DNA from: Thermoproteus uzoniensis 768-20
GTDB taxonomy: Archaea > Thermoproteota > Thermoprotei > Thermoproteales > Thermoproteaceae
DNA: 64,000 nt
Assembly: GCF_000193375.1 (NCBI RefSeq)
Contig: NC_015315.1
Location: forward strand, 566,622 to 630,621
Reading direction: 5' to 3'
Shown: piece by piece, positions 24,087 to 55,536 of the stretch
How the letters are laid out: each line of letters starts with the position of its first letter
How positions within the stretch are numbered: position 1 is the stretch's first letter
The notes under the pieces: model-generated
The model's database searches: none
What the model was told of the DNA's origin: nothing
The model's input: only the letters and a program-made list of their open reading frames with translations
Made by a program: the position numbers and the translations under genes

Positions 24087-24097
24087 GTTTAAAAATA
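24087..24097 (+). promoter_or_regulatory. TATA box for tRNA-Glu
   Basis: gtttaaaaata lies 19-29 nt before the 5' end of the tRNA-Glu gene at 24116. Confidence 0.5.
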
Positions 24098-24115: not shown

Positions 24116-24253
24116 GCCCCGGACGTCGGGGAGCCGTGGCAAGCCGGCCACTCCAACCGGTCGTCTAGTCCGGTCAAGGATATGGGCCTCTCGGGGCGCC
24201 GAAGGCCGCGCCGGAGGGAGCCCAAGACCCGGGTTCAAATCCCGGCCGGGGCA
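24116..24253 (+). tRNA. tRNA-Glu (CUC) with two introns
   Basis: Acceptor halves GCCCCGG (24116-24122) and CCGGGGC (24246-24252) pair fully; A73 is at 24253. The T arm is CCGGG-TTCAAAT-CCCGG (24229-24245). D-stem GTCT/GGAT lies at 24163-24181. The anticodon stem TGGGC/GCCCA holds loop CTCTCG+A, giving anticodon CUC. Two insertions must be removed: about 38 nt between the acceptor 5' strand and U8 (24123-24160, boundaries ambiguous by up to 4 nt because CCGG repeats), and 25 nt after G37 at 24194-24218, the canonical position. Removing both leaves 74 nt plus A73, normal for a tRNA. CCA is not encoded. Confidence 0.85.
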
Positions 24254-24327
24254 TCCAGTTCCTATACGTTCGGTATTGTGGCGGACAAGCCCCTATACGG
24301 TGGCCGTCGGTGCGGGGCGGCCGTAAA

Positions 24328-24337
24328 GCTTATAAAC
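24328..24337 (+). promoter_or_regulatory. TATA box for tRNA-Asp
   Basis: gcttataaac lies 23-32 nt before the 5' end of the tRNA-Asp gene at 24360. Confidence 0.5.
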
Positions 24338-24359
24338 ATCGCCCAGTTCTCCGAACGAT

Positions 24360-24485
24360 GCCCCGGACGTCGGGGAGCCGTGGATCCGCCGGCGACGGCG
24401 GCCACTCCAACCGGTCGTATAGTCCGGACTAGTATGCGGGCCTGTCGAGCCCGTGACCCGGGTTCAAATCCCGGCCGGGGCGCCA
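24360..24485 (+). tRNA. tRNA-Asp (GUC) with non-canonical intron
   Basis: Acceptor GCCCCGG (24360-24366) pairs with CCGGGGC (24475-24481); G73 and an encoded CCA follow (24482-24485). D-stem is GTAT/GTAT with A14; the anticodon stem CGGGC/GCCCG holds loop CTGTCGA, anticodon GUC; the T arm equals that of the tRNA-Glu gene. One intron of about 48 nt (24367-24414) sits between the acceptor 5' strand and U8; its ends are identical to those of the first tRNA-Glu intron while its middle is longer. Removing it leaves 74 nt plus G73. No intron at the canonical 37/38 site. Confidence 0.88.
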
Positions 24486-24543
24486 TTTCTCGGCGTTTTT
24501 AATCTCCTTGATTTACCTGATCGGCGGGGGTGTGTTATACGCG

Positions 24544-24557
24544 GGCCGGGGCGCCAT
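24544..24557 (+). repeat. Copy of tRNA-Asp 3' end, possible attachment-site remnant
   Basis: GGCCGGGGCGCCAT repeats exactly the 3' end of the tRNA-Asp gene plus CCA and one base (24473-24486), 71 nt downstream. Such direct repeats of a tRNA 3' end are left by elements that integrate at tRNA genes; the DNA between is only about 57 nt with no gene. Confidence 0.45.
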
Positions 24558-24746: not shown

Positions 24747-25157
24747 TTAGAGCGGCTTGACGGGAGTGACGGCGCCGCAGGCGGTGCACCTCAGCATGTA
24801 GATGCGCTCTTCCCTCTGGAGGACGGTGTCTATGGAGCCGCAGACGGGGCATATCACGTAGAACTTGAGGTACCTCTCGTAGACTGCCTCCACGACCTTC
24901 GGGGTCCTCTCGCCGCTGAGGATCAGCGAGTCTCCGTCTATCATGCCGGGCGTGGCCAGCTCCTTCTGGAAGAACTTGGCTATGTGGGCGGGGTCTCGGT
25001 TGAGCCTCTTGGCTATCTGGCCCAAGTTAGCTATCACGGTCCTGCGGGGGAGGTTCTGTATCTCGAGTTTGGGTATCTCGGCCCTTCTCTGGGCCTTGGG
25101 CGTGACGATCTTGTAGGCCCGCTCCAGGAGATCCATGTACTCCTTTTCCGAGGACAC
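24747..25157 (-). CDS. Translation initiation factor 2 subunit beta
   Basis: A 136-residue aIF2-beta. The N-terminal helix [11 protein letters not shown], the middle alpha/beta domain ([30 protein letters not shown]) and the C-terminal zinc ribbon CPVCGS...CTACGA are all present. With aIF2-alpha and -gamma it forms the factor that brings Met-tRNAi to the small subunit. The length is normal, ending ...GAVTPVKPL. After the TAA stop the same frame stays open for 36 more codons (24639-24746). The tRNA cluster lies downstream. Confidence 0.95.
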
Positions 25158-54084: not shown

Positions 54085-55536
54085 TCAGCCCTTGACGACG
54101 CCTATGGGCCTCTGCCTGACGACCTTCTTCGCGAAGCCGACCTGGTGGGCAGTCTCGACGACGAGGTCGACGTTCTTGTAGGCCTCCGGGGCCTCCTCGC
54201 TTATGACCTCGGTCTCGGCGCTCCTGACTATTATGCCTCTCTTCTCAAGCTCGGCCCTGACCCTCTGCGGCGGGAACGACCTTATGGCGGCCTCTCTGCT
54301 GAGCATGCGGCCGGCGCCGTGGGGGGCCGTCCCGAAGGTTATCTTCATGGCGTCGTGGGTGCCCACGAGTATCCAGGAGGCGCTGCCCATGGAGCCCGGT
54401 ATCAACACGGGCTGTCCTATCTCCCTATACTTGGCCGGTATTTCGGGATGGCCCGGCGGGAAGGCGCGGGTGGCGCCCTTGCGGTGCACCCAGACCTTCC
54501 TGAGAGTGCCCTTGTCGTCCACCTCGTGGGTCTCCAGCTTCGCTATGTTGTGGGCCACGTCGTACACTATCTCGAGGCCGACCTTCTCTATGGAACCGAA
54601 GACCCTCCTGAAGGCCTCCCTGACCCAGTGCATGATTATCTGCCTGTTTGTCCAGGCGAAGTTCGCGGCGGCCGCCATGGCCTTCAGATAGTCCTCGGCG
54701 ACTTTATCCCTCAGCGGCGCTGCGGCCAGCTCGCGGTCCGGCAGTCTCAGCCCCCACTCCCTCATCTTCCTCTCCATGACCATCAAGTAGTCGGTGGCCA
54801 CCTGGTGGCCGAACCCCCTGCTCCCCGTGTGTATCATGACGAGTATCTGGCCCTCCTGCTCTATGCCCATGGTCTTAGCGGCCTTCTCGTCGAATATCTT
54901 ATCGACGACCTGTATCTCGAGGAAGTGGTTGCCGGAGCCGAGAGTGCCCAGCTGGTCCTTCCCCCTGTTCTTGGCCCTCTCCGACACCTTGCTCGGGTCT
55001 GCGAGGTCCCAAGACCCCTTCTGCTCGATGAACTCCTTGTCCTCGGGCCAGCCGAAGCCCTTGGATATGGCCCACTCGACGCCCTCGGCGATCGCCTTGT
55101 CGAACTCCGAGACGGAGAGCTTCAGATGGCCTGTCTCGCCGACGCCGGGAGGCACCAGCTTGAATATCTCGTCCACGAGCTCCTTCAGCTTAGGCCTCAC
55201 ATCCTTCTCCGTCAAGTTTGTCCGTAGGACCCTCACGCCGCAGTTGATGTCGTACCCTATCCCGCCCGGCGATATGACGCCCTCCTCCGCGTCCACCGCG
55301 GCGACGCCGCCTATGGGGAATCCGTAGCCTTGATGGCCGTCGGGCAGGACTATGCTGTACTTATATATGCCGGGGAGGCACGCCACGTTCGCGCCCTGCT
55401 CCAGAGTCATGTCGGTCTTCATCTTCTCCAGCAAGGCGCTGTCGGCGAAGACCCTGACGGGCACCCTCATGCACTGCTTATACGTCTTGGGTATCTCCCA
55501 GATATAGTCCGTGATCTTATTTAAAGGCGGGGCCAT
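54085..55536 (-). CDS. rtcB: tRNA-splicing ligase RtcB
   Basis: A 483-residue RtcB. The metal-binding Cys is in GGIGYDINCGVRVL, and GHQGYGFPIGGVAA, LGTLGSGNHFLEIQ and GSRGFGHQVATDY are the conserved active-site segments. It joins tRNA halves after intron excision using GTP. Archaeal RtcB genes often hold inteins; here none is present. Start ATG 55536 gives MAPPLNKITDYIWEIPKTYK, and an extended frame upstream was rejected because a Shine-Dalgarno-like gaggggggaca lies directly before this ATG. Two intron-bearing tRNA genes are in the same window. Confidence 0.95.
   Translation of the reverse strand: MAPPLNKITDYIWEIPKTYKQCMRVPVRVFADSALLEKMKTDMTLEQGANVACLPGIYKYSIVLPDGHQGYGFPIGGVAAVDAEEGVISPGGIGYDINCGVRVLRTNLTEKDVRPKLKELVDEIFKLVPPGVGETGHLKLSVSEFDKAIAEGVEWAISKGFGWPEDKEFIEQKGSWDLADPSKVSERAKNRGKDQLGTLGSGNHFLEIQVVDKIFDEKAAKTMGIEQEGQILVMIHTGSRGFGHQVATDYLMVMERKMREWGLRLPDRELAAAPLRDKVAEDYLKAMAAAANFAWTNRQIIMHWVREAFRRVFGSIEKVGLEIVYDVAHNIAKLETHEVDDKGTLRKVWVHRKGATRAFPPGHPEIPAKYREIGQPVLIPGSMGSASWILVGTHDAMKITFGTAPHGAGRMLSREAAIRSFPPQRVRAELEKRGIIVRSAETEVISEEAPEAYKNVDLVVETAHQVGFAKKVVRQRPIGVVKG

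What the first reader, a model, noticed from the sequence alone, without database searches (positions are those of the whole stretch)
24116..24485. Same non-canonical intron in neighbouring tRNA-Glu and tRNA-Asp genes
Seen: both genes carry an insertion between the acceptor 5' strand and U8 whose first 17 nt and last 13 nt are identical, with different middles (about 38 versus 48 nt). Both spliced products come to exactly 74 nt plus base 73. Knowledge: Thermoproteales tRNAs hold many BHB introns at odd sites. Inference: one intron spread between the two genes, or the pair arose by duplication. C9 after splicing is unusual.
Basis: partly seen in the sequence, partly recalled or inferred. Interest (0 to 1): 0.6.

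Follow-up and report, generated by a model that had tools for sequence, protein, structure and literature searches.

The report
tRNA introns with acceptor-copying leaders
Two neighbouring archaeal tRNA genes share a small intron near their 5' end, but it sits in a different place than first read: what looked like the tRNA's first seven bases is a conserved copy of them in a removable leader, probably there to hold the precursor in shape until the intron is cut out.

Summary
The genome is Thermoproteus uzoniensis 768-20. In both genes only one pair of cuts gives the mature 5' sequence and also forms a strict bulge-helix-bulge (BHB): GGA-GCC|G...CTCCAA|CCGG. The intron is therefore 21 nt (Glu) or 31 nt (Asp) at position 3/4, a site already known in Thermoproteales. 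The first GCCCCGG is the start of a 17-nt 5' leader. All 29 homologous Asp/Glu genes found in Thermoproteus and Pyrobaculum have this BHB, with covariation. All 29 also carry a leader copy of the acceptor strand, 27 of them fully complementary to the acceptor 3' strand, mostly 25-30 nt below a TATA box. No sister gene lacking the intron has a fully complementary copy between TATA box and tRNA. My model: the leader copy occupies the acceptor 3' strand so the BHB can fold; after splicing the real 5' strand replaces it and RNase P removes the leader. Intron and site are known. The acceptor-copy leader is not described in the papers I could read, but the two key ones were not held. C9 is genuine. 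Nothing was tested on RNA.

The parts
24088..24097 (+). TATA box of the tRNA-Glu gene (TTTAAAAATA), 28 nt above the leader
   Evidence: TATA-to-start distance of 26 nt reported for Thermoproteus in PMC4731332
24116..24132 (+). tRNA-Glu 5' leader GCCCCGGACGTCGGGGA; its first 7 nt (24116-24122) copy the acceptor 5' strand; CCCCG/CGGGG can form a hairpin
   Evidence: conserved in 29 homologues
24133..24135 (+). tRNA-Glu exon 1, positions 1-3 (GCC)
   Evidence: only strict BHB solution
24136..24156 (+). tRNA-Glu 3/4 intron, 21 nt; BHB GGAG/CTCC, bulges CC|G and AA|C
24157..24193 (+). tRNA-Glu exon 2, positions 4-37 (anticodon CTC 24190-24192)
24194..24218 (+). tRNA-Glu canonical 37/38 intron, 25 nt; BHB CTCT/GGAG, inner helix 5 bp
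24219..24253 (+). tRNA-Glu exon 3, positions 38-73 (no encoded CCA)
24330..24335 (+). TATA box of the tRNA-Asp gene (TTATAA), 30 nt above the leader
24360..24376 (+). tRNA-Asp 5' leader GCCCCGGACGTCGGGGA, identical to that of tRNA-Glu; acceptor copy 24360-24366
24377..24379 (+). tRNA-Asp exon 1, positions 1-3 (GCC)
24380..24410 (+). tRNA-Asp 3/4 intron, 31 nt; BHB GGAG/CTCC
24411..24482 (+). tRNA-Asp exon 2, positions 4-73 (anticodon GTC); CCA encoded at 24483-24485

Best explanation
Each gene is transcribed from about the first GCCCCGG. Its transcript has a 17-nt 5' leader, then tRNA positions 1-3 (GCC), a 21- or 31-nt BHB intron at 3/4, and the rest of the tRNA. Three leader nucleotides plus G1 (GGA-G) pair with CUCC near the intron's 3' end to form the central 4-bp helix. 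The splicing endonuclease cuts CC|G and AA|C, the exons are joined by RtcB, and RNase P (type T here) removes the leader after the A. The intron and its limits are strongly supported by sequence and covariation; the enzymes follow from established knowledge of archaeal tRNA splicing. Inferred: the first 7 nt of the leader are a functional copy of the acceptor 5' strand. In the precursor the true strand is split 3+4 by the intron; the copy pairs with the acceptor 3' strand CCGGGGC, keeps the tRNA body folded and leaves GGAG free for the BHB. After splicing the reunited GCCCCGG replaces it, and the leader can fold into its own CCCCG/CGGGG hairpin beside the RNase P site. Estimated likelihood: 3/4 intron with the mature end at the second GCC, 0.93; acceptor-copy function of the leader, 0.45.
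For: Exhaustive search of cut pairs gives one strict BHB per gene and one in each of 29 homologues; cuts in the first copy never reach 4/4 pairs. Covariation of the BHB: 97.9% of cells paired, score 0.385 against 0.203 in shuffles (0/500) and at most 0.148 when slid; central helix AU<->GC compensatory, inner helix compensatory at three pairs. The machinery is in the genome: T-type RNase P RNA, splicing endonuclease, RtcB (inside this window). Leader: copy of the acceptor strand in 29/29, 27 with 7/7 complementarity to CCGGGGC against 1.2 expected from shuffled leaders (maximum 6 in 2000 rounds). The copy is nearly invariant (4 variants) while the rest of the leader has 20 variants. Copy base 7 is G in 13 of the 14 genes where it is not in the leader hairpin; copy base 1 is always G without a hairpin partner. 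Copy bases 3 and 5 change only C->U, which keeps G-U pairing. TATA boxes, where one was recognised (25 of 29 genes), lie 25-34 nt above the copy, mostly 25-30. Predicted energy of copy:acceptor + BHB is below the two competing states tested in 29/29 genes, median 6.4 and 10.8 kcal/mol at 37 C; copy:acceptor probability in the unspliced ensemble 0.93.
Against: No RNA data of any kind. Asp and Glu share one acceptor sequence, so copy:acceptor pairing cannot be tested by covariation; copy bases 2-5 also pair in the leader hairpin. The unconstrained fold rarely forms the BHB (mean 0.13), and even with the T arm enforced the overall minimum lies a little below the copy+BHB state in most genes. After splicing, the copy-bound and mature states are about equal in predicted energy (median 1 kcal/mol in favour of the copy), so the exchange is not shown to be downhill. 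The homologues come from two genera and are not independent. Two close relatives have a mismatch at copy base 7 (GCCCCGC).
Confidence: 0.85

Rival explanations
1. The first GCCCCGG is the true acceptor 5' strand and the whole 38/48 nt is an intron at 7/8 (or equivalently 3/4 to 6/7).
For: Gives the same mature sequence; the first copy pairs with the acceptor 3' strand in the unspliced fold.
Against: No cut in the first copy makes a 4-bp BHB helix in any of 29 genes. In two relatives the copy reads GCCCCGC (L036, L037), so a 7/8 cut would break the acceptor. The 3/4 BHB inside the insertion covaries.
Confidence: 0.05
2. The leader copy is conserved only because it forms the leader hairpin with CGGGG next to the RNase P site (a processing or stability element), not because it imitates the acceptor strand.
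For: The hairpin is predicted in 29/29 leaders and can coexist with the mature acceptor after splicing.
Against: The hairpin competes with the BHB helix for the same G residues. Copy bases 1, 6 and 7 stay G where the hairpin does not use them, with one exception at base 7. In the unspliced ensemble the hairpin has near-zero probability.
Confidence: 0.25
3. The copy is an evolutionary relic of how the intron arose (duplication of the tRNA 5' end at the original start site), kept by gene conversion and by the sequence needs of transcription initiation, with no processing role.
For: Leader-intron blocks look homogenised between genes. Sister genes without the intron have the TATA box about the same distance above G1 itself, so the copy lies at the ancestral start site.
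Against: Seven bases stay nearly fixed across two genera while the rest of the leader is scrambled. Two intron-less relatives that keep a related upstream stretch (L115, L122) have only 6/7 matches.
Confidence: 0.25

Closest known systems
Thermoproteales tRNA introns at position 3/4 (Sugahara et al. 2008, as cited in PMC4090602)
   Same: Same order, same position, BHB splicing; almost certainly the same introns or close homologues.
   Different: The reviews I could read do not mention a conserved leader copying the acceptor strand. The 2008 paper itself was not held, so it may describe this.
Transposed tRNA introns of Thermoproteales (Fujishima et al. 2010, cited in PMC4090602 and PMC4033280)
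   Same: Similar introns in different tRNAs of one genome; Asp and Glu blocks here can be closer within a genome than to orthologues.
   Different: Here the sharing is between two tRNAs with the same acceptor sequence, at the same position and with the same leader, so gene conversion or old common descent suffices. The paper was not held.
Permuted SRP RNA of Thermoproteus tenax and T. uzoniensis (PMC4731332)
   Same: A 5' leader takes part in the BHB that the tRNA splicing endonuclease cuts; TATA box 26 nt above the start.
   Different: There the leader pairs with the trailer and the RNA is circularised; here leader plus G1 pairs with intron sequence and the product is an ordinary tRNA.
Split tRNA leaders of Nanoarchaeum and Caldivirga (reviewed in PMC4033280, PMC4390854)
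   Same: Leader sequence supplies part of a BHB-containing duplex.
   Different: Those work in trans between two transcripts; this is one transcript in cis.

Membership tests
Archaeal BHB tRNA intron, position 3/4 | Central 4-bp helix flanked by two 3-nt bulges at the splice sites | tested here: met
   GGAG/CTCC with CC|G and AA|C, unique solution in 29/29 genes
Archaeal BHB tRNA intron, position 3/4 | Removal restores a full-length tRNA with a 7-bp acceptor stem | tested here: met
   both products 75 nt including base 73; 5' sequence identical to the uninterrupted start of tRNA-Glu(UUC) in the same genome
Archaeal BHB tRNA intron, position 3/4 | Helices supported by compensatory change among relatives | tested here: met
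Archaeal BHB tRNA intron, position 3/4 | Splicing endonuclease and ligase encoded in the genome | tested here: met
Archaeal BHB tRNA intron, position 3/4 | Excision observed in RNA | not testable with these tools
   no RNA reads available
Transposed intron (Fujishima 2010 type) | Near-identical intron in unrelated tRNA genes of one genome | tested here: inconclusive
   Found only in Asp and Glu genes, which share their acceptor sequence; no 3/4 intron among the other tRNA loci read from 4 genomes; closest matches are mixed
Recent duplication of the tRNA pair | Flanking similarity beyond the mature gene | tested here: not met
   60 nt upstream 54% and downstream 51% identical, about 49% in shuffles of the upstream stretch

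The most novel reading that the evidence does not exclude
The leader is a placeholder acceptor strand: a built-in copy of the tRNA 5' end that occupies the acceptor 3' strand while the true 5' strand is interrupted, lets the splicing motif form, and is then displaced by the spliced strand and cut off by RNase P. It would be a conserved strand-exchange step that orders splicing before 5'-end processing.
Probability: 0.4. Interest if true: 0.68.

Novelty: new variant of a known kind. Interest (0 to 1): 0.48.

Why it matters
Introns this close to the 5' end interrupt the precursor's own acceptor strand, and how such precursors fold and in what order they are processed is, as far as I could find, not established. 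A conserved leader that copies the acceptor strand would answer that and give a simple case of RNA strand exchange in tRNA maturation at high temperature. It also shows how gene finders or readers can misplace a tRNA 5' end: a plausible but probably wrong intron gives exactly the right product.

Tried and rejected
C9 as a splicing artefact: rejected, C9 occurs in uninterrupted genes. Recent duplication of the gene pair: flanks not alike. 3/4 introns in other isotypes with other acceptors, which would have tested the copy by covariation: none in the tRNA loci read of T. uzoniensis, T. tenax, P. calidifontis and P. aerophilum; this sample was not complete. Exact search for the shared 18-mer in public genomes: 11 of 12 hits are unrelated bacteria, one is Thermoproteus sp. 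CP80. Unconstrained folding: does not recover native arms, so constrained comparisons were used as well. Key papers (Sugahara 2008, Fujishima 2010, Lai 2010) are not held. The whole genome is not available as a file; I worked from stretches.

Full report
WHERE IT IS. The window is part of a single 1,936,063-base chromosome. The type-T RNase P RNA found here at 1,810,769-1,810,975 minus has exactly the coordinates that PMC7191817 lists for Thermoproteus uzoniensis 768-20, NC_015315.1, which identifies the organism.

OBSERVATION. tRNA-Glu(CUC) and tRNA-Asp(GUC) stand in tandem. Between GCCCCGG and T8 both have extra sequence, 38 and 48 nt, with identical ends. Removing it gives 75-nt tRNAs including base 73.

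BOUNDARIES. I tested every pair of cuts that yields GCCCCGGTCGT for a strict BHB (4-bp central helix, 3-nt bulges, inner helix). Each gene has exactly one: GGAGCC|GTGG...CCACTCCAA|CCGG. The intron is 21 nt (24136-24156) or 31 nt (24380-24410) at 3/4, and the mature 5' end is 24133 or 24377. The same search in 29 homologous Asp/Glu genes of Thermoproteus and Pyrobaculum (these two included) gives one solution in each, always this one; cuts in the first copy never reach four pairs. The motif covaries: GGAG/CUCC alternates with GGGG/CCCC and the inner helix changes on both sides at three pairs. The 3/4 position is already reported for Thermoproteales (PMC4090602). tRNA-Glu also has a normal 37/38 intron of 25 nt.

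LEADER. Upstream of the mature end is a 17-nt leader starting with a full copy of the acceptor 5' strand. All 29 intron-bearing genes have one, 17-32 nt above G1. In 27 it pairs 7/7 with the acceptor 3' strand and in two 6/7. Shuffled leaders reach 7/7 in 1.2 genes on average, at most 6. Only four versions of the copy occur, against 20 of the rest of the leader. TATA boxes sit mostly 25-30 nt above the copy, and 26 nt is the measured distance for Thermoproteus SRP RNA (PMC4731332), so transcription probably starts at the copy. Genes without the 3/4 intron have no 7/7 copy between TATA box and G1 (one 7/7 match, L127, lies above its TATA box); two carry 6/7 matches there (L115, L122).

WHAT IT MAY DO. 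With an intron at 3/4 the precursor's own 5' strand is split. In the unspliced ensemble the copy pairs with the acceptor 3' strand with mean probability 0.93. With the T arm enforced, copy:acceptor plus BHB beats hairpin-plus-exon 2 and BHB-plus-exon 2 in 29/29 genes at 37 and 80 C. The leader's own hairpin would use G residues that the BHB needs, so holding the copy on the acceptor should free them. After splicing, mature acceptor plus leader hairpin is possible, but its predicted energy is about equal to the copy-bound state. That step is inference. Copy base 7 remains G in 13 of 14 genes where the hairpin leaves it free, which argues for the acceptor match rather than the hairpin alone.

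ORIGIN. A recent duplication of the pair is not supported, since flanks are unlike. The intron is present in both isotypes across two genera and absent from the Asp/Glu genes read from the other families of the order. In three genomes the Asp block is closest to Glu blocks, consistent with gene conversion or transposition between them.

STATUS. Shown by sequence: 3/4 BHB, conserved acceptor-copy leader, machinery present. Inferred: start site, order of steps, function of the copy. Not shown: anything at RNA level. The original 3/4-intron papers could not be read, so the leader may have been noted before.

Noticed in passing
window 24473-24486 and 24544-24557: The last bases of tRNA-Asp with its CCA (GGCCGGGGCGCCAT) are repeated exactly 71 nt downstream (0 expected in shuffles). 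The tRNA 3' end matches the integrase region of Sulfolobus spindle-shaped viruses at 95% over 43-44 nt. It looks like a leftover attachment site of an integrated element.
   Followed up: partly
L138 (genome 439,500-440,100): tRNA-Glu(UUC) of the same genome lacks the 3/4 intron but has apparent insertions in the D region, at the anticodon loop and in the T loop, i.e. probably three introns.
   Followed up: no
L038 and L121: The tRNA-Glu leader of T. tenax (GCCCCGGCTAGACGGGG) is identical to that of Pyrobaculum genomes G030 and G031 and unlike T. uzoniensis, suggesting exchange of tRNA genes or of leader-intron blocks between genera.
   Followed up: no
window 24747-25157 (minus): The adjacent gene looks like translation initiation factor 2 beta. 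In Thermoproteus sp. CP80 (L125) the same gene lies directly upstream of tRNA-Glu in the same orientation, so this spot has been rearranged.
   Followed up: no
window about 54088-55398 (minus): The genome's RtcB ligase match, the likely tRNA exon ligase, lies in this window.
   Followed up: no
L132, L134: In two related genomes (G043, G044) tRNA-Asp has a roughly 100-nt insertion at the anticodon position whose second half contains a TATA-like box and a GC-rich stretch complementary to its first half; it could be a split (trans-spliced) tRNA.
   Followed up: no
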